In this document: positions 7,666 through 20,138 of the stretch, one piece after another
How the letters are laid out: each line of letters starts with the position of its first letter
Numbering within the stretch: the stretch's first letter is position 1
DNA from: Chloroflexota bacterium
Lineage (GTDB): Bacteria > Chloroflexota > Chloroflexia > Chloroflexales > Roseiflexaceae
Length of the DNA: 36,120 nt
Assembly: GCA_018969485.1 (NCBI GenBank)
Contig: JAGWYG010000028.1
Location: 1-36,120 of the forward strand
Direction: 5' to 3'
Made by a program: the position numbers and the translations under genes
Notes under the pieces: model-generated
The model's input: the letters and a program-made list of their open reading frames with translations, nothing else
What the model was told of the DNA's origin: nothing
Databases searched by the model: none

Positions 7666-10485
7666 ATGAGTCAATCGTTTGATACGGCTATTTTGTATGA
7701 CATTGAAAATCTTATTCAGGGGCGAGAATCAAATGAGCGCGTCGTTCGTGAAATATCACTCAAAGATATCTATGATCGCATCACGGCGGCGTCTGGCAAG
7801 AAGCGTATTGCAGTTCAACGCGCCTATGCCAATTGGAGTAACCCTGTTCTGGGAATGATGCGGCACTCGATCAATGAGCTCGGCATTGAACCAATACAGG
7901 TGTTTGGTTTTGCATTTGATTCGCGAAAAAATGCTGCGGACATTCAGCTCGTGATTGATGCCATCGATCTAGCATATATTCGGCCTTCAATTGAAAACTA
8001 CATCATTGTCTCGGGTGATGGCGGTTTTGCCGCGCTCGCCAATAAACTGCATCAAATTGGGCGAACCGTCATTGGATGTGGCTATGCGAGCAGCTCCAGC
8101 CGCGTATTTCGTGCAGTATGCGACAACTTCATCATTCTGCCAGATCCGGTTCTCCCGGTGACGGTACCACTGCTACCGGTGCGGCCATCGATCGGCTGGA
8201 GCGAGAGCGGCCGGATGATCGCGGCGCCGCGCGGCGCACCGGCGCCGTCCGGCGATGCTGGTGAGCCGGCGGTCGGCGCGGGCAGCGCGTCGGGTGACGC
8301 CATCGAGGTGCCGGCGCGACCGGCTGTGCCGGCGGCCAGTGCGGCAGCCGACGACACATCGCTCTTCCAGCGGGCGGCCGAGGTGATCAGCGGGATCGAG
8401 CGATCCGAGACGGGGAGCGTCGACATTCACACCGCAGGGATGCAGCTACCGGTCGTCCAGAAAATGATCGTCGAGGCGATTCCCGGTTTCAAGCCGCAGC
8501 TGCTCGGATACAGCAAGTTCATCGAGTTTCTGCGGGCCGTCTGTGCCGGACGCGACGTCGGCGTCGCGAGCCAGGCGGTCGGCGAGCTGCCGGTGCTGAT
8601 CCTGCGCCGTCTCGCGCAGGAGCGCGGCTGGGTGATTCACGCCGATGTCGAGCGGCGGGGAGCGCACAGCGACGCCAGCTATCGGGCGGCGTTGCAGGCG
8701 GGTGGCTTCAGCATCGTCGGCGGCGATGTCATCAGGAGCGTCGCCGGCTGGCTCGCCGGGCAGCCGGCCGAGCAGCGGAACGCGTCATCCGATGGGCATG
8801 ATGCGGCAGTGCGCGCGCTTGGGGCGCAGCACGATCCCGGCCAGATCCGGCAGGTGCTGGAATTGATCGCACGTGCCACCGAAGGCCAGCCGGGGATCGT
8901 GCAGGCGAGCAGCGCCGAGGGGCTGGCCGGCGCGGTCGCGCGGTACGCCGCACGCATCATGCGTCAGCGCAAGGCGCCGTTCGACCGCAGCATCCTCGAG
9001 CAGGTGATCGGGCTGCCGGTGCCCGACGACGGCGCAGACGAAGCCGGCGAGGCTGCCGGGCGCTCCGCGGGCGAGGCAGCGGTGCGCCCGGCGGCGGGCG
9101 ATGAGTCGCCGGGTGATGTGCTGGTTCAGATCCGCGATCGCGTGGGCACCACCATCGCACTCGCCGAGTCGATCGTCGCCGGCCGTAAGGTCGATCCCGC
9201 AGCCGGCAGTTGGATCGACGCCGGCCTGCGCGATCAGCGCAACGGCCGGGAGACATGGCGTGCAGTCGAGGGATGTTACCGGGGCCTGTGGTCGGCGCTG
9301 GATCTGATGACCCAGATCGAGGGCGAGTGGCAGAGCGTCCGGTCACACGGTGACATGCTCAGCCGGCTGTGGGGCAGCCCGCTCGACACCTGGCGCAAGC
9401 GCGGCCTGATGCTGGTCGCCGAAACGCAGTCGGCGGTGCGCGCGATCGTCGCGACGGTCAGCTCGTACGCCGACGCCGACCAGCGGGATGTCTTCCTGTG
9501 GTTGCGGGCATTTGCCGCACGGGAGAAGATCTTCATCGCGCGGCACATGAAACTCGAGGACATCGCCGATCCGCGATTGTGGGCGACGCGGCTGCGGACG
9601 CTCGATGAGCAGCGCGAGCTGTTCATTGCGGCGCGCGAGCGCGCCGGGCGGCAGCGGGTTGCGGCGCAGGCGCTGCTCGACGCGCTGGCGCAGGCGCCCG
9701 ATGCGCTGACGATGCCCGATGAGGTGGCCGATGCGCTGCGCGTGCTGGCCGAGCACGGCGTCGAGCGCGGCTCGGCGGCGTTTCGCGGGATCATCGGTCC
9801 GTATCGCGAGCGCATCGCCCGCTGGAGTGATGCGGGCAGCCGTGAGGTGCTACCCGAGCATGGGGGTGATTCGACGGCGGCGGGCGCGGCGCCCGCGTGG
9901 TTCGCGGCGCTGGCGCAGCGTGCTGATGCGCGTGCCGCGCTGGCAGCGGCGCGTGCCGAAGGATCATCGGCGCCGGAGGACGCCGATCTGGCCGGCGGCT
10001 GGCCCGCAGCGGGTGGTGATCCGGCGCTGTGGACCACGGTGGCTGGCTGGTTCACCGCATTTGCCCGCGCCCTGACCGGGCTGGTCGCGGTCGAGCAGGC
10101 CGCAGCGCGTGCGATCGAGCGCGACGCGGGGGAACGGCAGCGCCGCGAGACGCTCGCCGCCTGGCGTGTCGCGATGCTGCAGGGCCTGTATGCCGTCGAG
10201 CATGGGCTCGCGGTCGCGCTGGCGGCGGCAGCGGTGCCCGAGGATGCCGATCAGGCGGCGCTGCGTGCCTGGCTCGCGACGGCGGCTCCGGGAGAGCCGG
10301 TCACGGACTATGAGGTGACGGCGTGGCACGCCGCGCTGGCTGCCTGTGATGCGCGTCTGGCGCTGCTCCATGACGCCGATCGGCCTGAGATGGCCGGGGA
10401 TGATGCTGCGGTGCGGTATGCTGCGCCGTCGGCGGTGAGTGAGCAGGATCCGCCGGCTGTGGACGATGTGCGCGAGCCGGCATGA
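7666..10485 (+). CDS. NYN domain / LOTUS (OST-HTH)-like protein with a C-terminal helical module
   Basis: Predicted 939-residue protein. Residues 5-158 form a NYN/LabA-like PIN-fold nuclease domain: LYDIENL with Asp12, Glu14 and Asn15, the AADIQLVIDAI segment (Asp92, Asp98) and IVSGDGGF with Asp118, the usual acidic metal-binding set. After a Pro/Ala-rich linker (160-230), residues 231-295 resemble an OST-HTH/LOTUS domain (GMQLPVVQKMI, GFKPQLLGYSKFIEFL), often RNA-binding and often paired with NYN. The C-terminal 480 residues are helical; residues 497-637 resemble part of the DUF2325 protein encoded at 18273-20138. The start is ATG 7666, with GAGGAA 9 bp upstream; a TTG at 7657 is unlikely. 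The first 450-480 bp are AT-richer than the rest. Likely an RNA-processing protein (inference from domains). Confidence 0.85.
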   Translation: MSQSFDTAILYDIENLIQGRESNERVVREISLKDIYDRITAASGKKRIAVQRAYANWSNPVLGMMRHSINELGIEPIQVFGFAFDSRKNAADIQLVIDAIDLAYIRPSIENYIIVSGDGGFAALANKLHQIGRTVIGCGYASSSSRVFRAVCDNFIILPDPVLPVTVPLLPVRPSIGWSESGRMIAAPRGAPAPSGDAGEPAVGAGSASGDAIEVPARPAVPAASAAADDTSLFQRAAEVISGIERSETGSVDIHTAGMQLPVVQKMIVEAIPGFKPQLLGYSKFIEFLRAVCAGRDVGVASQAVGELPVLILRRLAQERGWVIHADVERRGAHSDASYRAALQAGGFSIVGGDVIRSVAGWLAGQPAEQRNASSDGHDAAVRALGAQHDPGQIRQVLELIARATEGQPGIVQASSAEGLAGAVARYAARIMRQRKAPFDRSILEQVIGLPVPDDGADEAGEAAGRSAGEAAVRPAAGDESPGDVLVQIRDRVGTTIALAESIVAGRKVDPAAGSWIDAGLRDQRNGRETWRAVEGCYRGLWSALDLMTQIEGEWQSVRSHGDMLSRLWGSPLDTWRKRGLMLVAETQSAVRAIVATVSSYADADQRDVFLWLRAFAAREKIFIARHMKLEDIADPRLWATRLRTLDEQRELFIAARERAGRQRVAAQALLDALAQAPDALTMPDEVADALRVLAEHGVERGSAAFRGIIGPYRERIARWSDAGSREVLPEHGGDSTAAGAAPAWFAALAQRADARAALAAARAEGSSAPEDADLAGGWPAAGGDPALWTTVAGWFTAFARALTGLVAVEQAAARAIERDAGERQRRETLAAWRVAMLQGLYAVEHGLAVALAAAAVPEDADQAALRAWLATAAPGEPVTDYEVTAWHAALAACDARLALLHDADRPEMAGDDAAVRYAAPSAVSEQDPPAVDDVREPA

Positions 10486-10516
10486 TCTGCTGCGGCCACT
10501 GGGCGGCGCGGGAGTC

Positions 10517-10590
10517 GCACGAAGACACGAAGGCACGAAGGGACGGGGGACGGGGGCCGCGATCTCACACGAAGACACGAAGACACGAAG
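10517..10590. repeat. Two clusters of ACACGAAG octamer repeats
   Basis: Three octamers (GCACGAAG, ACACGAAG, GCACGAAG) at 10517-10540 and three ACACGAAG units at 10567-10590, separated by a G-rich spacer (ggacggggg type). The same arrangement recurs at 36026-36119. It is an intergenic simple repeat with no spacers of the kind seen in CRISPR arrays. Confidence 0.85.
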
Positions 10591-10662
10591 GGACGGGGGC
10601 AGGTCTCATCCCGTGCTCCTCGCTCCTCGCGGCCAGCCACCCCAGAGCCGCGCGGATGGTAG

Positions 10663-10668
10663 TATGAT
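10663..10668 (+). promoter_or_regulatory. Likely -10 element before the long plus-strand operon
   Basis: TATGAT at 10663-10668 lies about 38 bp before the ATG at 10706. A start near 10675 would give a 30-nt leader containing GAAGGAG. No clear -35 is visible. Confidence 0.4.
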
Positions 10669-10705
10669 GCACACGACACGGCCGAAGCCGCGAAGGAGTT
10701 CATCC

Positions 10706-11470
10706 ATGACGATTCGCATCGGTGTCCAGATCGAGCCCCAGGCGACGACCTTCGCGTCGTTCGCGCACGCTGTCCGCCAGGTCGAGGCGCTGGGCGTCGA
10801 TACGATCTGGACCTGGGATCACTTCTTCCCGCTGCATGGCGATCCCAACGCCGGGCACTTCGAGGGCTGGACCCTGCTCACCGCGATGGCGATGCTCACG
10901 AGCCGCGCCGAGATCGGCTGCATGGTCATCTGCAATAGCTATCGCAATCCCGCCTTGCTGGCGCATATGGCCAAGACCCTCGATCACATCAGCGGCGGCC
11001 GCGCCATCCTCGGCATCGGTGCTGGTTGGTTTGAGCGTGATTATGTTGAGTTCGGCTATGAATTCGGCACCGCCGCCGAGCGACTGCGGCACCTGCGCGA
11101 CGCGCTCCCGGTCATCCTGCAGCGGCTCGACGCCGAGATTCCGCAGCCAGTCCGCCATCCGATGCCACTGCTGATCGGTGGCGGCGGCGAGAAAGTGACG
11201 TTGCGGCTGACCGCGCAATACGCCACGATGTGGAACGGCTTCGGGCCGCCGGAAGCCTACCGGCACAAGAACGCCGTCCTCGACGAATGGTGCCGCAGCA
11301 TCGGCCGCGACCCGGCCGAGATCGAGCGCACCGTCATGGCGGGCGACGCCGCGCAGTTCGATGCGCTGGTCGAGGCGGGGGCACAGCACCTGATCATCTC
11401 GATCGGCGACCCGTGGGATTTTGGCAAGGTCGAGCGGCTGCTGGCCTGGCGCGCCAACCGCGGGCATTGA
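10706..11470 (+). CDS. LLM-class (F420/FMN-dependent) oxidoreductase
   Basis: Luciferase-like monooxygenase superfamily protein of 254 residues with a TIM-barrel fold. Family signatures are the N-terminal IRIGVQIEPQATTF, WTWDHFFPLHGD (active-site Asp-His after beta-2), ISGGRAILGIGAGWFERDY (the highly conserved GxGxGW loop) and PLLIGGGGEKVTLRL. The pattern is that of F420-dependent members rather than true luciferases, but FMN cannot be excluded. It is shorter than the usual 290-340 residues, with the C-terminal part compact. The start is ATG 10706, with GAAGGAG 6-7 bp upstream; longer in-frame starts run into the octamer repeats. First gene of an operon; murI starts 5 bp after its stop. Confidence 0.88.
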   Translation: MTIRIGVQIEPQATTFASFAHAVRQVEALGVDTIWTWDHFFPLHGDPNAGHFEGWTLLTAMAMLTSRAEIGCMVICNSYRNPALLAHMAKTLDHISGGRAILGIGAGWFERDYVEFGYEFGTAAERLRHLRDALPVILQRLDAEIPQPVRHPMPLLIGGGGEKVTLRLTAQYATMWNGFGPPEAYRHKNAVLDEWCRSIGRDPAEIERTVMAGDAAQFDALVEAGAQHLIISIGDPWDFGKVERLLAWRANRGH

Positions 11471-11475
11471 GCAGC

Positions 11476-12318
11476 ATGCGGACGGCGCCCGGGCCAATCG
11501 GCCTGTTCGACAGCGGCATCGGTGGTGCGACGGTCCTCGCCGCCTTGCACCAGCACATGCCGCACGATGATCTGGTGCTGCTCTCGGACCAGGCGCGGTG
11601 TCCGTACGGCCCGCGCCCGGCAGCCGAGCTCGTCCGGATCGCGCTGGCCAACACCCGCTGGCTGCTCGCCCAGGAGGCCCGGCTGATCGTGGTGGCATGC
11701 AACACCGCCAGCGCCGCAGCGCTCGGCACGCTGCGCAGCACGTTTCCCGGCGTGCCATTCGTCGGCATGGTGCCGGCCGTCAAGCCGGCAGTGCGCGCCA
11801 GCCAGCGCCAGGCGATCGGCGTGCTGGCCACCCCCACGACCATCGCGGGGACGCTGCTGCGCGATGTCATCGCGCAGTGGGCCGGCGATGCACGCGTGAT
11901 CGCGCAGGCCTGTCCCGGGCTCGTCGAGCAGATCGAGGCCGGCGAGCTCGACACCCCGGCCACCGTCGCGCTGCTGACGCAGCATCTCGCGCCACTCAGG
12001 GATGCCGGCGTCGACACCATCGTCCTCGGATGTACCCACTACCCGCTCGTCGCGCCGACCATCGCGCGGCTGATGGGCGCGGGCGTCAGCATCATCGACG
12101 CCGCGCCGGCCGTCGCGCGGCAGGTCGCGCGCATCGTCGCCAGCCACAGCACGGCGCCGGGGAGCGGCAGCATCCGGTACGTCACGACCGGCGACCAGCG
12201 CGGATACCAGCAACTGATCGAGCGCTGCGGCCTGCCGCCCGGCCAGATCGAGCGCATCGCGCCACTCGACATCAACCCGCAGCCCGACGCCATGATCAAT
12301 GCACACAGGAGTGAATGA
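11476..12318 (+). CDS. murI: Glutamate racemase
   Basis: Cofactor-independent racemase making D-glutamate for peptidoglycan. The 280-residue protein has the complete family set: GLFDSGIGG (residues 9-17, Asp12-Ser13), YGPRP (44-48), the first catalytic Cys75 in VACNTASA and the second Cys186 in LGCTHYPL. Two symmetrical alpha/beta domains are implied. The start is ATG 11476, 5 bp after the oxidoreductase stop, so translational coupling is likely; the long frame starting at 11230 overlaps that gene and is not credible. Its stop overlaps the ATG-ATG start region of the ribokinase. A cell-wall gene inside an otherwise carbohydrate-related operon is unusual. Confidence 0.95.
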   Translation: MRTAPGPIGLFDSGIGGATVLAALHQHMPHDDLVLLSDQARCPYGPRPAAELVRIALANTRWLLAQEARLIVVACNTASAAALGTLRSTFPGVPFVGMVPAVKPAVRASQRQAIGVLATPTTIAGTLLRDVIAQWAGDARVIAQACPGLVEQIEAGELDTPATVALLTQHLAPLRDAGVDTIVLGCTHYPLVAPTIARLMGAGVSIIDAAPAVARQVARIVASHSTAPGSGSIRYVTTGDQRGYQQLIERCGLPPGQIERIAPLDINPQPDAMINAHRSE

Positions 12319-13226
12319 TGAGCATCGTCGTCTTCGGCAGCATCAACATGGACCTTGTGACGCGTACACCGCGCCTGCCGGCGCCGGGCGAGACGCTCAC
12401 CGCGCACGGGTTCGTCACCACGCCGGGCGGCAAGGGCGCCAACCAGGCGGTCGCGTGTGCGCGGCTCGGCGCGACGACGCGCATGGTCGGCCGGGTGGGT
12501 GACGACGTCTTCGGCGCCGCGCTGCGCGGCAGCCTCGGGCAGTACGGCGTGGACACATCGTTCGTCGCCACCCAGCCTGGCGCATCGGGCATCGCGGCGA
12601 TCGCCGTGAGCGACGCCGCCGAGAACACCATCCTGATCGTCGCCGGCGCCAACGGCGCCGTCGGGCAGGCCGACATCGCCGCGCTCGACGACGCGCTCGA
12701 CGGCGCGCAGGTCCTGCTGCTGCAGCTCGAGGTGCCGCTCGCCGCCGTGACCGGCGCCGCCCGCGCCGCCCGCGCCCGCGGCGTCACCGTCGTGCTGGAC
12801 CCGGCCCCGGCGGTGCCGCTGCCCGACGAACTGATGCGGCTGGTCGATATCATCACGCCCAACGAGACCGAAGCTGCGCTGCTGACCGGCATCGCGCCAG
12901 ACGACGATGCGGCAGTGGTGGCAGCCGCAGCCGCACTGCGGGCACGCGGCGCCGGGACTGCGGTGATCAAGCTCGGCGGGCGTGGCGCGTTCGTCGACGA
13001 CGGCCAGACGCGGGCGTTCATTCCGGCATTCCCGGTCACGCCGGTCGACACCGTCGCCGCCGGCGACGCCTTCAACGGCGGCCTCGCCGTCGGCCTCGAC
13101 GCCGGGCTGACGCTCGCCGCGGCGCTGCGGCTGGCCGCAGCCACCGGCGCCATGGCCGTGACGCGGCCCGGCGCACAGGAAGCCATGCCGACGCGCGCCG
13201 AGGTCGACGTCCTGCTGGCCAGCTGA
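12318..13226 (+). CDS. rbsK: Ribokinase (PfkB family)
   Basis: PfkB-family sugar kinase of 302 residues that phosphorylates ribose (or a related pentose) at O5. Motifs are GSINMD (residues 7-12), PGGKGANQAVACARLG (36-51, first PfkB signature), IITPNE with Asn182-Glu183 and DTVAAGDAFNGG (244-255) containing the anion hole and catalytic base Asp250. Two ATGs are adjacent, at 12315 and 12318. AGGAG at 12307-12311 has better spacing to 12318, which is reported. It overlaps the murI stop. The downstream GH127 enzyme releases L-arabinofuranose, so a pentose-related role is sensible, though the exact sugar is not fixed by sequence. Confidence 0.92.
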   Translation: MSIVVFGSINMDLVTRTPRLPAPGETLTAHGFVTTPGGKGANQAVACARLGATTRMVGRVGDDVFGAALRGSLGQYGVDTSFVATQPGASGIAAIAVSDAAENTILIVAGANGAVGQADIAALDDALDGAQVLLLQLEVPLAAVTGAARAARARGVTVVLDPAPAVPLPDELMRLVDIITPNETEAALLTGIAPDDDAAVVAAAAALRARGAGTAVIKLGGRGAFVDDGQTRAFIPAFPVTPVDTVAAGDAFNGGLAVGLDAGLTLAAALRLAAATGAMAVTRPGAQEAMPTRAEVDVLLAS

Positions 13227-13270
13227 GCGATGCGCCGTGCGTGATGCGGCGAGCGAGAGAGGAGCGTGCG

Positions 13271-14071
13271 ATGAGCCGTCGATTTGCCAGCAATCCCGTG
13301 ACCGATGCGCTGCGCCGCGGCGCGCCGGCGGTCGGCAGCTGGCTCAGCCTGGGGTCGCCGTCGGCCGCCGAGACGATGGCACAGCTCGGCTGGGACTGGC
13401 TGGTGGTCGATGTCGAGCACAGCCCGATCGATTTCGAGACGATGGTGCACTGTTTTCGTGCCATCCAGCTGGGCGGCTCGATTCCGCTGGCGCGCGTACC
13501 ATGGAACGACACGATCTGGATCCAGCGGACCCTCGACGCCGGCGCGTTCGGCCTGGTCGTGCCGATGGTGAATACCGCCGACGATGCCCGGCGGGTGGTC
13601 GCCGACATGCGCTACGCGACGCGCGGGCAGCGCAGCTACGGCGGGCAGCGGCTGGCAGCCTACGTCGATGGCGACTACCGTAGCTGGGCCGACGAGCACC
13701 TGACGGTGGTCGTGATGATCGAGACCGCCGAGGCGGTGCGCAATGCCGAGGCCATCCTGGCGGTCGATGGCGTGACCGGCTGCTTCATCGGGCCGAACGA
13801 TCTGGCATTGTCGCTCGGCCTGCCGCCGGGAGCGGGTGGGCCGGGCAGCGCGCACGAAGCCGCCATCCAGCAGGTGCTGCACGCCTGCCGCACCACCGGC
13901 CGGGCCGCCGGCAAGCACTGCTTCACCGCCGCCGAAGTCGTCCAGCGCATCGGCGAGGGCTTCCAGTTCCTGGCGCTGGCGAGCGACGCCGCGCTGCTGA
14001 GCGGCGCCGCACGCGCCGCGCTGGCGACCGTCCGTGCCGGCGACGTCGAACGACCCACCAGCCTGTACTGA
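13271..14071 (+). CDS. HpcH/HpaI aldolase family protein
   Basis: Class II, metal-dependent pyruvate aldolase of 266 residues (the family of 4-hydroxy-2-oxoheptanedioate aldolase, 2-keto-3-deoxy-L-rhamnonate aldolase and macrophomate synthase). Active-site residues are all present: His50 in VVDVEHSP, Arg75 in LARVPW, Glu151 in MIETAEAV and Asp177 in FIGPNDLALS, at spacings matching HpcH (His45, Arg70, Glu149, Asp175). In this setting, after a pentose kinase and before an arabinofuranosidase, cleavage of a 2-keto-3-deoxy sugar acid is more likely than aromatic catabolism (inference). The start is ATG 13271, with GAGAGAGGAG upstream; the earlier ATGs at 13241/13244 lie before this RBS. Confidence 0.92.
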   Translation: MSRRFASNPVTDALRRGAPAVGSWLSLGSPSAAETMAQLGWDWLVVDVEHSPIDFETMVHCFRAIQLGGSIPLARVPWNDTIWIQRTLDAGAFGLVVPMVNTADDARRVVADMRYATRGQRSYGGQRLAAYVDGDYRSWADEHLTVVVMIETAEAVRNAEAILAVDGVTGCFIGPNDLALSLGLPPGAGGPGSAHEAAIQQVLHACRTTGRAAGKHCFTAAEVVQRIGEGFQFLALASDAALLSGAARAALATVRAGDVERPTSLY

Positions 14072-14085
14072 CGCGAGGAGCCACC

Positions 14086-16002
14086 ATGTCCGCACCGACA
14101 CGCCGCTTTGTCCCGGCCGATCTGCGCGCCGTCGTCATCGACGACGGTTTCTGGGGCACACGCCAGCAGATCAACCGCGAGCGCACCATCCCGCATGTCT
14201 ACGCGCAGCTCGCCGAATCCGGCCGGCTGGCGGCGTTCGCGCGCGACTGGCAGCCCAGCGCCGCCGAGCGCGAGCGCGCCGCCTGGGGTGGTTCGACGGT
14301 GATGTTCTGGGATTCCGACGTGGCCAAGTGGGTCGAGGCGGCGGCGGTGAGCCTGACGTGCCACCCCGACGCGGCACTCGCCACCCGGCTCGCCGCGCTG
14401 GTCGAGCAGATCGTGGCGCGCCAGGAGCCCGATGGCTACCTGAATACCTACTTCACCACGATCGATCCGGCCGGCCGCTGGGCCAATCTGCGCGACTGGC
14501 ACGAGCTGTACTGCATCGGGCACCTGATCGAGGCAGCGGTGGCCTGCCACCAGGCGACCGGTGATGCCGCATTCCTTCTGGCGATGCAGCGCGCCGCCGC
14601 GCTGATCGCCGACGTGTTCGGCACCGGCCCGGGGCAGCGCCGCGGCTACTGTGGCCACCCCGAGATCGAGCTCGCGCTGATCCGGCTGTGGCAGGTCAGC
14701 GGCGACGACCGCCATCTGGCGCTGAGCCGCTACTTCATCGACGAGCGGGGCCGGCAGCCACACTACTATGACGAAGAAGCCCGGCAGCGCGGCGAGGCGC
14801 CCGAGCGCTTCTGGGCGCGTTCGTACGAATACAACCAGAGCCACCTGCCGGTCCGCCAGCAACGCACGGTCGCCGGGCATGCCGTGCGCGCCGCCTACCT
14901 GTACAGTGCGATGGCCGACCTGGCGCTGATCGACGGCGATGCCGCCCTGTTCGAGGGGTGCGATGCGCTCTGGCGGCACCTGACCACGACGCGCATGTAC
15001 GTCATGGGGGGCATCGGCACCTCGCGGCACAACGAGGGCTTCACCAGCGACTACGACCTGCCGAACGAGAGCGCCTACGCCGAGACCTGCGCCGCCATCG
15101 CGCTGGTGTTCTGGGCGCAGCGCATGCTCGCTGCCGGCCCTGACCGACGCTACGGCGATGTGCTGGAGCTCGCGCTGCACAATGCCGTGCTGAGCGGCGT
15201 CGCCCTCGACGGCACCAGCTACTTCTACGATAACCCGCTCGCCAGCGACGGCAATCACCATCGCCAGGCCTGGTTCGCCTGCCCGTGCTGCCCGCCGAAC
15301 CTCGCCCGGATCATCGCGGCCGTCGGGCCGCTGGCCTATGCCAGCAGCGATGACACGCTGGCGGTGCACCTGTACCTCGCGAGCCATGCCACGCTGACGC
15401 TGCGCGACGGATCGGTCCAGATACGGCAGCAGACCAGCTACCCCTGGGATGGCGCAGTCACGCTGACGGTCGGGGCCGCGGCGCCGCTGGAGTTCACGCT
15501 CGCACTGCGCATCCCCGGCTGGTGCACGGGGGCCAGCCTGCGGCTGAACGGCGTCGGGCAGCCGCTGGTGCTGCACGCCGGGTATGCGCACCTCCGCCGT
15601 ACGTGGCACGATGGCGATCAGCTGCAGCTTGAACTGCCGATGCCGGTGACGCGGCTGTACGCCCATCCGGCCGTGCGCGCCGCCGCCGGTCAGGTGGCGC
15701 TGCGACGCGGCCCGCTGATCTACTGCATCGAGCAGTTCGACCACCAGGTGCCGCTCGATACCGTGCGACTGCCGGCCGATGCCGCGCTCGACGCCCACTT
15801 CGATGCCAGCCTGCTCGGCGGCGTGATGGTCATCACCGGCACCGCCGACGCCTGCCGCAGCGATGACTGGTCCGACACGCTGTATCGCCCGACACCGGCG
15901 CACGTCACGGCGACGCCGCTGCGCGCCATTCCGTACTTCGCCTGGGACAACCGCCCGTCCGGTGCGATGCGCGTCTGGATCAGCGAGCGCGGTGTGCGAT
16001 GA
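14086..16002 (+). CDS. Glycoside hydrolase family 127, beta-L-arabinofuranosidase
   Basis: 638-residue GH127 (DUF1680) enzyme. It has an N-terminal alpha/alpha barrel and C-terminal beta-sandwich domains, typical length about 650. The unusual zinc-thiolate active site of this family is intact: Glu317 in HNEGF (equivalent to the acid/base Glu322 of HypBA1), Glu333 and Cys335 in AETC and the CPCC pair Cys401-Cys402 (equivalent to Cys417-Cys418, the first being the nucleophile). No signal peptide, so it acts on imported oligosaccharides in the cytoplasm. The start is ATG 14086, 14 bp after the aldolase stop with GCGAGGAG upstream; the stop overlaps the ccmA start by 4 bp. Confidence 0.94.
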   Translation: MSAPTRRFVPADLRAVVIDDGFWGTRQQINRERTIPHVYAQLAESGRLAAFARDWQPSAAERERAAWGGSTVMFWDSDVAKWVEAAAVSLTCHPDAALATRLAALVEQIVARQEPDGYLNTYFTTIDPAGRWANLRDWHELYCIGHLIEAAVACHQATGDAAFLLAMQRAAALIADVFGTGPGQRRGYCGHPEIELALIRLWQVSGDDRHLALSRYFIDERGRQPHYYDEEARQRGEAPERFWARSYEYNQSHLPVRQQRTVAGHAVRAAYLYSAMADLALIDGDAALFEGCDALWRHLTTTRMYVMGGIGTSRHNEGFTSDYDLPNESAYAETCAAIALVFWAQRMLAAGPDRRYGDVLELALHNAVLSGVALDGTSYFYDNPLASDGNHHRQAWFACPCCPPNLARIIAAVGPLAYASSDDTLAVHLYLASHATLTLRDGSVQIRQQTSYPWDGAVTLTVGAAAPLEFTLALRIPGWCTGASLRLNGVGQPLVLHAGYAHLRRTWHDGDQLQLELPMPVTRLYAHPAVRAAAGQVALRRGPLIYCIEQFDHQVPLDTVRLPADAALDAHFDASLLGGVMVITGTADACRSDDWSDTLYRPTPAHVTATPLRAIPYFAWDNRPSGAMRVWISERGVR

Positions 16003-16634
16003 GCACCGCACTGGTTCTGGACGTACAGCGCCTCGGCTGCGCCTATGGCGCACGACCGCTCTTCAGCGAGCTCTCGCTGCGCATCACCGGCGGGCAGGTG
16101 CTGGTCATCGCCGGCGCCAACGGCAGCGGCAAGAGCACGCTCATCCGCGTGCTGTGTGGCCTGCAGCGCCCGCAGCATGGTGAGGTGCAGTGGTGGCGCG
16201 ATGGCGTCATGCGGGCGCCGGCCGCCGCCAGCGGCTGGATCGGTTGGGTCGCGCCCGACGTGCAGCTCTACCGCGAGCTCACCGCCCGCGAGAACCTGGA
16301 GTTCTTCGCACGCGTCCGCGGCATGCCCCGGCATCCCGCCGAGCTCGATGCCCTGCTCGACGACAGCGGCCTCGGCGGCCGCGGCGACGATCGCCTGGCC
16401 GCCTACTCCTCGGGGATGCAGCAGCGCCTGCGCTACGCCTGCGCCCTGCTGCACGATCCGCCATTCCTGCTGCTCGACGAACCCACCGTGACCCTCGACG
16501 CCCGTGGTGCCGACATCGTCGCCCGGCTGATCGCCGCGCGCCGGCGCCATGGCATCATCGTCATCGCCACCAACGACCCACGGGAAGAGCAGTATGCCGA
16601 TGTCATCATCCGGCTCGGGCAGGCCGCCCGCTGA
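15999..16634 (+). CDS. ccmA: Heme exporter ATP-binding protein CcmA
   Basis: ABC ATPase of 211 residues, the nucleotide-binding subunit of CcmAB(CD), which drives release of heme-loaded CcmE in cytochrome c maturation system I. Walker A GANGSGKST (about residues 38-46), PDVQLYRELTARENLEFF after the Q-loop region, signature YSSGMQQRL and Walker B FLLLDEP are visible. The short length and a partner with CcmB features identify it over generic ABC ATPases. The H-loop has Asn (ATNDP) in place of His, seen here directly. The start overlaps the GH127 stop (ATGA), and the end overlaps ccmB by about 40 bp. Confidence 0.85.
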   Translation: MSTALVLDVQRLGCAYGARPLFSELSLRITGGQVLVIAGANGSGKSTLIRVLCGLQRPQHGEVQWWRDGVMRAPAAASGWIGWVAPDVQLYRELTARENLEFFARVRGMPRHPAELDALLDDSGLGGRGDDRLAAYSSGMQQRLRYACALLHDPPFLLLDEPTVTLDARGADIVARLIAARRRHGIIVIATNDPREEQYADVIIRLGQAAR

Positions 16635-17334
16635 GGCGGCGCCGGGCTGGCGCCACATCCTCGATGCCGGCCTCGCCGTGTTCATCAAGGAAGTCCGCAG
16701 CGAGGTTCGCACGCGCTATGCGCTGAATGCCGTCCTGCTGTTCGCCGTCTGCACGATCGTCGCCGTCAGCCTCGGCCTCGGCCCGATCGCACCGCGACGC
16801 AATCCCGACCTGCCGCTGATCCAGGCGGCGCTGTTGTGGATGGCGGTCCTGTTCGCCGCATTCACCGGCCTGGCGCGGACGTTCATCCAGGAGGAAGATG
16901 CGCGGACGGCGGCGGCATTGCGCCTGGCCGCGCCGGCGCTGGCGGTATTCCTCGGCAAGGCATGGTTCAACACGCTGCTGCTCGGCCTGCTCACCAGCCT
17001 GAGCGCGGCGCTGTTCCTCGTGCTGCTGCGCGTCGGCGTCGCCGACCTGGCACAGTTCTGTCTGGTGCTGGCGCTGGGCAGCGCCGGGCTGGTCGCCGCC
17101 ACGACCCTGATCGCCGCGATCATCGCGCGCGCCAGCGCCCGTGGCGCGCTGTTCGCGGTGCTCTCGTTTCCGCTGCTCACGCCGCTGCTGGTGGTCGCGA
17201 TCCGCGCGACCGCGCTCGCGATCGAGGGCGTCACGTGGGCGGTGATCGGCCCGCCGCTGCAGATCCTGGCAGCCTATGCGATTGCGCTGTTCACCGCATC
17301 GCTCCTGCTGTTCGATGTGGTGTGGGAGGCCTGA
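16594..17334 (+). CDS. ccmB: Heme exporter membrane protein CcmB
   Basis: Polytopic membrane protein of about 246 residues with six hydrophobic helices. The N-terminal FIKEVRSEVRTRYALN, the middle LLWMAVLFAAFTGLARTFIQEE and APALAVFLGKAWFN follow the CcmB pattern closely (KE-x-R-x-E, LW-x3-LFA, LxR-x-F-x2-E). Start alternatives are ATG 16594 and ATG 16600, both preceded by GGAAGAG; the 5' part overlaps ccmA. No ccmC, ccmE or ccmF follows: the next 0.9 kb is non-coding. The remaining maturation genes must therefore lie elsewhere or be absent. Confidence 0.87.
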   Translation: MPMSSSGSGRPPAEAAPGWRHILDAGLAVFIKEVRSEVRTRYALNAVLLFAVCTIVAVSLGLGPIAPRRNPDLPLIQAALLWMAVLFAAFTGLARTFIQEEDARTAAALRLAAPALAVFLGKAWFNTLLLGLLTSLSAALFLVLLRVGVADLAQFCLVLALGSAGLVAATTLIAAIIARASARGALFAVLSFPLLTPLLVVAIRATALAIEGVTWAVIGPPLQILAAYAIALFTASLLLFDVVWEA

Positions 17335-17349
17335 CGCTGCGGCAGTCGC

Positions 17350-17370
17350 GCGGGCCGGGTGGGTGCCCGC
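17350..17370 (+). terminator. Hairpin after ccmB
   Basis: Stem GCGGGC/GCCCGC with a 9-nt loop, starting 16 bp after the ccmB stop. No T tract. It is a weak but well-placed terminator candidate for the long operon. Confidence 0.35.
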
Positions 17371-17407
17371 CCCGCATCCGTCTTGACGATGCGCCCCGGC
17401 GTTCTAT
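17371..17407 (+). repeat. Direct repeat copy 1, degenerate promoter
   Basis: 37 bp, differing at two positions from 18078-18114. It contains TTGACG (17383-17388), a 16-bp spacer identical in length to that of copy 2, and TATCGC (17405-17410) where copy 2 has TATACT, so it is probably a weaker or inactive promoter. Confidence 0.8.
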
Positions 17408-17823
17408 CGCCAGCACGCCGCACGGGGCACAGCATTCCGTGGCGCTGCCCGGCAGTCGGCATTGACGGCGGAGCCGATCCTGCGGCGCCCGGGGCACCGT
17501 GCCGCGCCGCTGCGGGCATCTCCCGGTTCGAACGCGCAGCGCGCGACGCGTGCCCCCCGGCAGCCCTGACCCGCCCCACGGGTGTGACGTCACGTGGTGC
17601 ACGGGAGATGACGACGTGCCGGCCAGTTCGCGCTGGCGGCGCACGCGTCAGGGGATGCCGCGCCGCAAGTACCGTCGCGACAGCACTGCGGCGCAGCGGT
17701 TTGTCTGCAGACGCCGCACCACGCCGTTGTGCCACGGCGTGCCTGGCCACCCGCGGCGCCCGCGCCCTGGCCAGGCAGCCCGCGCCGCCTGGGCGCGCGC
17801 TTGCCGCATCAGCCGTCCGTATC

Positions 17824-17971
17824 CTCTGCCTCCCCAGAGAAACCTGCCCCCGCACGGGGGCAACCCTCTCGGCCCCATCGCGGCGCAGCCCGCCTGCGCG
17901 GGCCGTGGCAGGAGGCCGCGTCGGCGGCCTTGGCCTTGGGAGCCGCCCTGCAGGGCGACGGCGCGCCGTCG
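17824..17971. other. Cluster of six perfect stem-loops
   Basis: Consecutive perfect stems: CTCTG/CAGAG (17824-17839), TGCCCC(C)/GGGGCA (17845-17862), GCCCGC/GCGGGC (17888-17903), GGCCGC-GTCG-GCGGCC (17914-17929), the 14-bp palindrome CGCCCTGCAGGGCG (17944-17957) and the 16-bp palindrome at 17956-17971, whose half is CGACGGCG. High GC raises the chance rate, but six in 148 bp is dense. It may be a structured RNA or a REP/MITE-like element. Confidence 0.4.
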
Positions 17972-18077
17972 GGGGAGTGTTGGCATCGCCCGCCCCCGCT
18001 TCTTCGCGGCGAGGAGATCGCGATCGCTCGCCGCATGCTCGTGCGCACTACGGAGATACGTTACATCACACCCCCGT

Positions 18078-18114
18078 CCCGCATCTGTCTTGACAATGCG
18101 CCCCGGCGTTCTAT
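18078..18114 (+). repeat. Direct repeat copy 2
   Basis: Second copy of the 37-bp sequence at 17371-17407, with differences at two positions, one of which turns TTGACG into TTGACA. Sequence diverges right after the shared CTAT of the -10 region. Confidence 0.8.
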
Positions 18115-18117
18115 ACT
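18090..18117 (+). promoter_or_regulatory. Near-consensus sigma70 promoter of the DUF2325 gene
   Basis: TTGACA (18090-18095), 16-bp spacer and TATACT (18112-18117), the closest match to the vegetative consensus in the window. The predicted start, near 18124, leaves a 150-nt leader before the ATG at 18273. Confidence 0.72.
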
Positions 18118-18272
18118 CACTATAACTGCACGGAACCCTCACCGTGCCGGCGCCAGGCCCCACACGCATACGACATCGCCCGGCGGCGGATCGCAGGCAG
18201 CCCGCCAACGGATCTCGCGGCTGGCAGGGCACGCCAGCACCGACGGTGGCGGAAAGTCCAGGAAGGTGAATC

Positions 18273-20138
18273 ATGGCTGAATCAGCACGATCATTTGCTG
18301 AACCCATCGCAGCACTCAGGCAGCTCTTCGCTGCCGCCGCGGCCGAGAGCGAGGCGGCGGTGGCGGCAGTGCGCGCTGGCAATCTGGTGGCAGCGCGCGC
18401 GGTGGGCGAACGGCTGGCCGAATGCGACCGCAGCGCAGGCGCGCTCGCCGGTGCGATCGCCGAATACGCCGCGACGCTCGGCCTGGCCCTCGATCGCCGC
18501 GCCGACTCGCTCGACGATGTCGTCGCGCTCGACCAGCGCCTCGCGGCACACCAGCAGGCGCTGCTCCGGCGCGATCGGGCGCTCGCCCTGCTGCCCGAGG
18601 TGCTGCGCCTCGAGCACACCCGCGAGGCGGGCGCGTTCCTGCTCCCGCTGGTTCGCGAAGTCAAGCGGGTCCGCACGGCGATCCAGGCCGGTGACTTCGC
18701 GCTGGCCGAAGCGCTGTGCGATGGGCGCCACGCGCTCGCCGCCGTGCTGGCCATCGCCCGCGACCGCGACACACTCGGCGAGGATGTCGTTGCGGAGCTC
18801 GGCCAGCAGGTGGCTGCGAGCACACTCGGCAGCCGCATCGCCTTCGCGGCCATCGCCGGCCGCCTGCGGCTGCGCACTGCGGCGGTGCCGGTCGTTCCCG
18901 CGCCGACGGCGGTGCCGGTCGTTCCCGCGCCGGCGGCGGTGCCAGCCAGAGCCAGCGGACCATCCGGCATCGACATCGCGACGCGTCCTGCGGCCGATCC
19001 AGCGGCGCCCGTCGTGGCGCCGCGCGTCAGCCCCGAGCTGCTGCAGCGTCTGTCCGAGCATTTCAGGCCCAGCGAACCCACAACTGGCCGGCGCGCATCG
19101 GGCTCAGCGGGCCCCGGCCAGATGCAGCGAAGCCCCGCGGCAGGCGAATTCGTCCGCGACGAGCGGTCGACGCTGGGGCGCATCGTGGCGTCGGCCAGAG
19201 CGCACGCGCAGTTCATCGCCAATCAGATCACCGGCACCAAGGCCGATCTGAGCGACGCGATCGACCGCGCCTATGCCGCTGCGCTCGTCGCCCGGGCGCG
19301 GCGCAGCAGCTGGCCGGCGCTCGCCAGGGGCTACGCGCTGACAGGCGATGCCGGCGACCTGGCGCACAAGGCGCTGGCGACGCCGCGGCGCGAGCTGCCC
19401 GAACCGCTCGTCCGCCTGCTGGCATGGTCGCAGTCGATCCTGCGCAGCGCGGCCATCGACAGCCTGGGCGGCGGCACAGTCGATGCCACCCAGTTGATGC
19501 TCTACGACTGGCTCATCATCCTCTGCCGCCGCCGCCGCATCTATCTGGCACAGTACATGAGCCTGGAGACACAGGCGCCGGTGAGCGACCTGACCGCCGC
19601 CTATGAGGAGTACGGGCGCCTCGCCGCACTGCTGGCCGAAGCGCAACCGGCCAGGTCGGAGCGTGGCGCGAGGCTCCGGGCAGTGCCCGCGCCGACGCGC
19701 GACGCCAGGCCCCAGCCGCCACCCGAGCCGACGCGCGACGCCAGGCCCCAGCCCGCATCGCGGGCCAGCGAGACGCTGATCGAGCGCGTCGCGCGCTGGC
19801 TGCGTGGGCGCTCGATCCTGTTCGTCGGCGGCGAACGGCGCCCCGAGTACGTCGAGCGCCACACGCGCACCTTCGGCCTGCGCGAGTTCATCTGGGCGAC
19901 CGGCGATCGTGGGCCGACGCCGGCGCAATTCGAGGCCGACATCGCCCGCGACGACGTCGCAGTCGTCGTGCTGGCGATCCGCTGGTCGCGCCACAGCTTC
20001 GGCGACATTAGGCAGGCCTGCCAGCGGCACGGCAAACCGCTGGTACGGTTGCGCGCAGGCTATAATGAGCACGAGCTGGCGCGCAACATCGAAGAGCAAG
20101 CCGGCGCGCGCCTCGCGCTCAATGCCACCACGGTCTAG
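18273..20138 (+). CDS. DUF2325 protein with coiled-coil N-terminus and helical module
   Basis: 621-residue protein. Residues 10-200 are Ala/Leu/Glu-rich helices, probably coiled coil. A Pro-rich linker (204-225) carries a 9-residue repeat. Residues 307-436 form a helical module with WPALARGY, QSILRS, YDWLIILC and IYLAQYMSLE, which aligns with residues 497-637 of the NYN-LOTUS protein at 7666-10485. A second linker (472-498) holds a 12-residue repeat. The C-terminal 513-600 matches DUF2325: SILFVGGERR, a variable acidic middle, VAVVVLAIRWSRHS and the closing CQRHGKPLVRLRAG, in a Rossmann-like layout. Start ATG 18273 with GGAAGGTGA. DUF2325 function is not established. The paired module suggests that it works with the NYN protein. 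Confidence 0.82.
   Translation: MAESARSFAEPIAALRQLFAAAAAESEAAVAAVRAGNLVAARAVGERLAECDRSAGALAGAIAEYAATLGLALDRRADSLDDVVALDQRLAAHQQALLRRDRALALLPEVLRLEHTREAGAFLLPLVREVKRVRTAIQAGDFALAEALCDGRHALAAVLAIARDRDTLGEDVVAELGQQVAASTLGSRIAFAAIAGRLRLRTAAVPVVPAPTAVPVVPAPAAVPARASGPSGIDIATRPAADPAAPVVAPRVSPELLQRLSEHFRPSEPTTGRRASGSAGPGQMQRSPAAGEFVRDERSTLGRIVASARAHAQFIANQITGTKADLSDAIDRAYAAALVARARRSSWPALARGYALTGDAGDLAHKALATPRRELPEPLVRLLAWSQSILRSAAIDSLGGGTVDATQLMLYDWLIILCRRRRIYLAQYMSLETQAPVSDLTAAYEEYGRLAALLAEAQPARSERGARLRAVPAPTRDARPQPPPEPTRDARPQPASRASETLIERVARWLRGRSILFVGGERRPEYVERHTRTFGLREFIWATGDRGPTPAQFEADIARDDVAVVVLAIRWSRHSFGDIRQACQRHGKPLVRLRAGYNEHELARNIEEQAGARLALNATTV
18882..18932 (+). repeat. In-frame 27-bp period repeat in the DUF2325 gene
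   Basis: A 24-nt unit (18882-18905) recurs exactly at 18909-18932 with a 27-bp period and a partial third copy, giving the AVPVVPAPT-type linker. Recent duplication or slippage in a flexible linker is likely. Confidence 0.75.
19691..19753 (+). repeat. In-frame 36-bp period repeat in the DUF2325 gene
   Basis: A 27-nt unit (19691-19717) recurs identically at 19727-19753 with a 36-bp period, encoding PTRDARPQP twice in the linker before the DUF2325 domain. Confidence 0.75.

What the first reader, a model, noticed from the sequence alone, without database searches (positions are those of the whole stretch)
7666..20138. NYN-LOTUS protein and DUF2325 protein share a helical module: possible two-component RNA-directed system
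Seen directly: residues 497-637 of the NYN protein (9154-9576) and 307-436 of the DUF2325 protein (19191-19580) align. A W-x-A-V/L-x2-G/C-Y block is followed by QSAVRAIV versus QSILRSAA, FLWLRAF versus YDWLIIL, and KIFIARHMKLED versus RIYLAQYMSLET, in the same order with similar spacing. Known: NYN is a PIN-like RNase fold, LOTUS binds RNA, and DUF2325 is an uncharacterised Rossmann-like domain. Inference: the shared module targets both proteins to the same scaffold or RNP, or makes them interact, giving a nuclease arm and a DUF2325 arm. I know of no described system with this layout.
Basis: partly seen in the sequence, partly recalled or inferred. Interest (0 to 1): 0.8.

Follow-up and report, generated by a model that had tools for sequence, protein, structure and literature searches.

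The report
RNase that borrowed an orphan helical domain
Two proteins in this Chloroflexota genome really do share an undescribed helical domain, but in other bacteria that domain belongs to one stand-alone protein of unknown function, and here it has been joined to an RNA-cutting enzyme, which hints that the unknown family is connected with RNA.

Summary
Blocks at 9106-9870 (NYN-LOTUS protein) and about 19125-19682 (DUF2325-like protein) are homologous. A profile built only from other phyla hits them at E 5e-25 and 1.6e-13, against a best of 0.35 among 3000 shuffles. Both are predicted as confident all-helical folds.

The two-component reading is not supported. The domain normally sits in a single-copy, stand-alone protein [domain + DUF2325-like]. 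I found 80 such loci, mostly Planctomycetota, and one copy per genome in 50 of 50 genomes, without conserved neighbours. The NYN fusion was found only in the window's genus. The two genes are 7.8 kb apart, separated by metabolic genes, and that linkage is not kept in the sister genome.

The best reading is domain capture. A Chloroflexales copy was added to a NYN-LOTUS RNase. Its core (residues 581-645) is under purifying selection as strong as the nuclease domain (dN/dS 0.012 against 0.006), while the copy in the DUF2325 protein has lost conserved residues. The domain most likely recruits the RNase to whatever the DUF2325 family binds. It has no match in Pfam, NCBIfam or PDB. Function and target remain inferred.

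The parts
7666..10485 (+). NYN-LOTUS-module gene (939 aa)
   Evidence: Pfam NYN 3.7e-25; orthologue in sister genome G001, split over contigs C267 and C652
7684..8139 (+). NYN (PIN-like RNase) domain, residues 7-158
   Evidence: Pfam NYN 89.6 bits; dN/dS 0.006 over residues 1-160; VPA0982 (2qip) is the only PDB sequence relative
8362..8565 (+). probable LOTUS/OST-HTH domain, residues about 233-300
   Evidence: Pfam OST-HTH E 0.034, below cut-off; dN/dS 0.09; similar segment after NYN in shorter relatives
9106..9870 (+). shared helical module in the NYN protein, residues 481-735
   Evidence: AlphaFold pLDDT mostly above 90
9406..9600 (+). module core, residues 581-645 (ETQSAVR...DADQ..FLWLR...IFIARHMKLEDIADP)
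   Evidence: 1 amino-acid change in 65 codons against synonymous divergence 0.39; dN/dS 0.012
9871..10482 (+). helical C-terminal tail, residues 736-939; a second module copy is not supported
   Evidence: dN/dS 0.44; hhalign probability 7% against the module
18273..20138 (+). DUF2325-like gene (621 aa)
   Evidence: Pfam DUF2325 E 4.4e-4, below cut-off
18273..18893 (+). N-terminal helical domain, residues 1-207, shared with a second protein of this genome and one of G035
19125..19682 (+). truncated, diverged copy of the module, residues about 285-470
   Evidence: HMM E 1.6e-13; pLDDT mostly above 90 over about 341-460 and in parts of 290-340; several conserved core residues lost
19779..20132 (+). 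DUF2325-like alpha/beta domain, residues 503-620
   Evidence: Pfam; receiver-like fold, best Z 8.8; GG..RP, AIRW.(R)H, C, KPLVRL and GY kept

Best explanation
The shared block is a real, uncatalogued helical domain of about 230-290 aa. Its usual home is a single-copy, stand-alone protein [short N-terminal region + module + DUF2325-like domain] scattered through Planctomycetota, Hydrogenedentota, Verrucomicrobiota, Chlorobi/Kapabacteria, Myxococcota and Chloroflexota. In the ancestor of the window's genus a Chloroflexales copy of the module was joined to the C-terminal side of a NYN-LOTUS RNase. The RNase kept the module core under nuclease-grade constraint, while the module in the genus's own DUF2325 protein decayed and was truncated. 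Likely mechanism: the module core is a specific recognition surface for a partner protein, an RNP or RNA. It steers the NYN RNase to the target that the module-DUF2325 proteins use elsewhere, with the DUF2325-like domain acting as ligand or signal input in those proteins. Shown: homology, distribution, constraint, predicted fold, lack of linkage. Inferred: recruitment as the function, RNA as the context, the direction of capture, and the role of DUF2325.
For: Homology. Distribution and single copy: 80 loci; one copy in 50/50 genomes; 18/294 genomes of the Planctomycetota draw; 9/82 in the order and none elsewhere among 301 phylum genomes. Most NYN relatives of the window protein lack the module. 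The NYN module groups with Chloroflexaceae module-DUF2325 proteins (support 83/97). Core dN/dS 0.012, equal in order to the NYN domain (0.006) and below LOTUS (0.09), with flanks 0.27-0.44. The NYN copy keeps AE.QSA.R, D.DQ, WL and R.M..D.ADP, while the DUF2325 copy has lost several of these. The module is also seen without DUF2325 (L170), and this DUF2325 type without the module in Deinococcus, so each part can stand alone.
Against: No experiment or binding partner is known. The fusion is seen in one genus (two genomes, the second with the gene split over two contigs). The module is acidic overall with only a local basic helix, so direct RNA binding is not indicated. The window DUF2325 copy sits on a long branch and cannot be placed. 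Decay of that copy rests on one sequence, because the sister orthologue ends at a contig edge.
Confidence: 0.55

Rival explanations
1. One reading: NYN and DUF2325 proteins are two arms of one system in this genus, held together by the module on a common scaffold or by pairing with each other.
For: Both genes are in the same contig here, and both occur in the sister genome G001. Both keep a recognisable module.
Against: 7.8 kb of metabolic genes lie between them; linkage is not kept in G001; no second module gene in 50/50 other genomes; the DUF2325 copy has lost much of the conserved core.
Confidence: 0.12
2. The module is itself an undescribed helical enzyme or nucleotide-binding unit; the fusion makes a bifunctional RNA-processing protein.
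For: The core is as constrained as a catalytic domain, with invariant or near-invariant polar residues Q, S, D, Q, R and D across phyla.
Against: No fold or sequence match to any enzyme; specific binding surfaces can be equally constrained.
Confidence: 0.17
3. The module-DUF2325 family is part of a stress or defence response, and the NYN fusion is a new effector of it.
For: Patchy distribution; a different DUF2325-like protein lies inside a Dpd DNA-modification island in G348; the Campylobacter DUF2325 protein Cj1384 is oxidative-stress induced (PMC9426514).
Against: 125 neighbour proteins show no accumulation of defence families, and no neighbour is conserved; none in the viral or phage collections. 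No control set was scanned.
Confidence: 0.12
4. The likeness is chance or generic helix similarity.
For: The direct pairwise E-value is only 0.026.
Against: Independent profiles from other phyla hit both proteins far beyond shuffles, in the same motif order.
Confidence: 0.01

Closest known systems
LK-nuclease/NYN + OST-HTH (LOTUS) proteins of bacteria and eukaryotes (PMC2848206)
   Same: N-terminal NYN/PIN-like nuclease followed by a LOTUS-like segment; stand-alone gene without conserved neighbours, as that paper reports for bacterial members
   Different: Carries about 600 more residues, including a helical module not found in other relatives searched; its LOTUS match is below the Pfam cut-off
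DUF2325 proteins (Pfam PF10087; e.g. C. jejuni Cj1384, PMC9426514)
   Same: C-terminal alpha/beta domain matching PF10087 weakly but over most of its length, with conserved GG and H/C positions
   Different: Cj1384 is a 104-aa Cys-rich protein; here the domain is divergent, below cut-off, and normally preceded by the helical module
Effector-associated domains of ternary conflict systems (PMC8195603)
   Same: A non-catalytic-looking helical domain carried by an effector-like RNase in a Chloroflexota genome
   Different: EADs are small domains used by several proteins of a genome and tied to ternary operons; this module is large, single copy in 50/50 genomes and without an operon

Membership tests
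NYN / LK-nuclease | Full-length NYN profile match over the curated cut-off | tested here: met
   89.6 bits against 24.2, profile positions 2-144 of 145
NYN / LK-nuclease | Ribonuclease activity | not testable with these tools
   Domain under very strong constraint (dN/dS 0.006); activity needs an assay
LOTUS/OST-HTH | Profile match over cut-off | tested here: inconclusive
   14.5 bits against 23.8, E 0.034; position and constraint fit
DUF2325 | Profile match over cut-off | tested here: not met
   20.8 bits against 33.6; 21 of 56 relatives match at E up to 0.01, best 1.8e-5. Described here as DUF2325-like
DUF2325 | Rossmann-like alpha/beta fold | tested here: met
   Predicted alpha/beta domain, pLDDT above 90 for most of 501-620; best structural neighbours are receiver domains, Z 8.8, rmsd 2.9 over 100 residues
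Two-component NYN/DUF2325 system | Conserved linkage or operon | tested here: not met
Two-component NYN/DUF2325 system | Co-occurrence of two module-bearing genes across genomes | tested here: not met
   Only in the window's genus; 50/50 other genomes have one
Two-component NYN/DUF2325 system | Physical interaction | not tested
Effector-associated domain (EAD) of ternary systems | Same small domain on several proteins of a genome or operon | tested here: not met
   Single copy in 50/50 genomes; two copies only in the window's genus
Known solved fold | Significant match to a PDB entry | tested here: inconclusive
   No Foldseek E below 0.1; helical-bundle Z values up to 9.6 are within the background for helical models; sequence profile matches only designed coiled coils

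The most novel reading that the evidence does not exclude
The module defines a widespread, undescribed RNA-related pathway: a helical recognition or catalytic domain coupled to a DUF2325-like sensor in scattered phyla, whose link to RNA decay is exposed only by the NYN-LOTUS fusion in this genus.
Probability: 0.3. Interest if true: 0.7.

Novelty: new variant of a known kind. Interest (0 to 1): 0.48.

Why it matters
It defines an uncatalogued protein domain found in several phyla, gives a first functional hint (a fusion with an RNase) for an otherwise orphan DUF2325-like family, and names a short, extremely conserved core whose mutation would test that hint directly.

Tried and rejected
Genome-contig scan with the single window DUF2325 protein found nothing; an alignment was needed. 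Viral contigs and phages: no relatives. Tandem second module in the NYN tail: rejected as unsupported (hhalign probability 7%). Conserved neighbours: the only recurring clusters besides the family itself are antisense ORFs of the gene, common domains or close relatives; RtcB directly upstream (140-157 nt, same strand) in L074 and L080 comes from one lineage, so it was not used. Defence-island hypothesis: neighbours not enriched in PADLOC hits, though without a control set. Structure search gave no informative match. PDB sequence search: only designed coiled coils for the module. Protein comparison on A6/A7 failed internally, so hhalign was run in Python. DUF2325 literature: four papers, none on this family.

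Full report
Check of the observation. The coordinates and the quoted motifs are exact. In relatives, the NYN C-terminal block turned up by direct search inside DUF2325-type proteins of another family of the same order (G038, E 2.4e-9; G035, E 3.9e-9). A profile of five such Chloroflexaceae proteins, cut before the DUF2325 part, hits the NYN protein at 3.5e-20 and the window DUF2325 protein at 1.3e-5; the best shuffle is 0.015. A profile made without any Chloroflexales member, nearly all of it from other phyla, hits them at 5.1e-25 and 1.6e-13; the best of 3000 shuffles is 0.35. hhalign agrees (5.7e-19 and 4.1e-9). Homology is established.

What the unit is. Scanning one genome for each of 84,980 species with the module-DUF2325 alignment gave 80 loci, mainly Planctomycetota, also Hydrogenedentota, Verrucomicrobiota, Chlorobi/Kapabacteria, Myxococcota and Chloroflexota. 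Their proteins are mostly 500-600 aa with the same order: short N-terminal region, module, DUF2325-like domain. In 50 of 50 such genomes searched whole, the module occurs once. In a draw of 294 genomes from the Planctomycetota, 18 have it. In the window's order 9 of 82 have it, and none was found outside the order among 301 genomes of the phylum. That phylum draw is a sample: two Chloroflexota loci outside Chloroflexaceae (L065, L072) do appear. The module occurs once without DUF2325 (L170), and this DUF2325 type occurs without a detectable module on Deinococcus plasmids. Pfam, NCBIfam and PADLOC have no model for the module.

Genomic setting. The gene has no conserved neighbour across the 80 loci, and only 26 of 268 near neighbours lie on the same strand within 100 nt, so it is mostly a stand-alone gene. 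In the window, 7.8 kb with a luciferase-like monooxygenase, racemase, PfkB kinase, GH127 and CcmB genes separate the two proteins. In the sister genome G001 the block from the monooxygenase to the DUF2325 gene is kept. The NYN gene, however, is followed by 4.4 kb that does not match the window, and the block is preceded by 10.8 kb that does not match. The two genes therefore do not travel as a unit.

History and selection. Most NYN relatives in the order lack the module. In a tree of 58 module sequences the NYN module groups with Chloroflexaceae module-DUF2325 proteins (83/97), while the window DUF2325 copy has a branch of 3.13 and is not placed. Comparing the NYN gene with G001, dN/dS is 0.006 in the NYN domain, 0.012 in the module core (1 amino-acid change in 65 codons, synonymous divergence 0.39), 0.09 in the LOTUS-like segment and 0.27-0.44 elsewhere. 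With the gene-wide rate of 231 changes in 931 codons, one or none in 65 has a binomial probability of about 2e-7 (my arithmetic; the segment was chosen from the family alignment). Many synonymous changes in the core argue against recent conversion or contamination. The NYN copy keeps the family's core residues; the DUF2325 copy has lost several and lacks the C-terminal third.

Structure. AlphaFold with 51-56 homologues gives a confident all-helical module in both proteins and an alpha/beta DUF2325-like domain. No solved structure matches the module beyond the background expected of helical bundles. The DUF2325-like domain resembles receiver domains (Z 8.8, rmsd 2.9, 100 residues), a common alpha/beta arrangement that shows no function.

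Mechanism. The best-supported account is domain capture. A Chloroflexales module was added to a NYN-LOTUS RNase, where its core now has a function as constrained as the nuclease. Recruitment of the RNase to the partner or RNA that module-DUF2325 proteins recognise is the most likely function (inference). That the core is itself catalytic is the main rival. The two-arm model is possible within the genus but has no support from linkage or distribution.

Known relatives. NYN-LOTUS proteins are described as stand-alone RNA-degrading enzymes in bacteria (PMC2848206), and this protein fits that kind apart from the added module. Effector-associated domains (PMC8195603) resemble it in idea, but the single-copy test is not met. 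DUF2325 has almost no literature; Cj1384 is induced in oxidative stress and Cys-rich (PMC9426514).

Noticed in passing
18273-18893; G000:C90:395-1012 (L139, L181); G035:C77 (L033:9852-12890): The N-terminal domain of the window DUF2325 protein is also shared: with a second protein of the same genome ending in a DDDDDE-repeat acidic tail at a contig edge, and with a 1013-aa protein of G035 near a McrB-like AAA gene; only these and the G001 orthologue were found in 82 genomes.
   Followed up: partly
L136:7625-9907 (G348): A TPR plus DUF2325-like protein (761 aa) lies inside a Dpd (7-deazaguanine DNA modification) island next to DpdJ, DpdK, DpdE and DpdF matches, so a DUF2325-like domain also serves in a defence-type system.
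   Followed up: partly
L186:7965-9189 (Deinococcus gobiensis plasmid P2): A free-standing 122-aa DUF2325 domain gene is followed 56 nt later, on the same strand, by an annotated 3'-5' exonuclease.
   Followed up: no
L074:7774-9270 and L080:7871-9262: The RNA ligase RtcB lies 140-157 nt upstream of the module-DUF2325 gene, same strand, in two related Planctomycetaceae genomes; one lineage only.
   Followed up: partly
L185:1704-8324 (Deinococcus wulumuqiensis pDrdI): A 600-aa DUF2325 protein without the module sits in a PRTRC plasmid gene cluster.
   Followed up: no
L170:5087-8284 (G555): A Planctomycetota gene carries the module at its C-terminus with no DUF2325 domain detected in the same reading frame or nearby ORFs.
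   Followed up: partly
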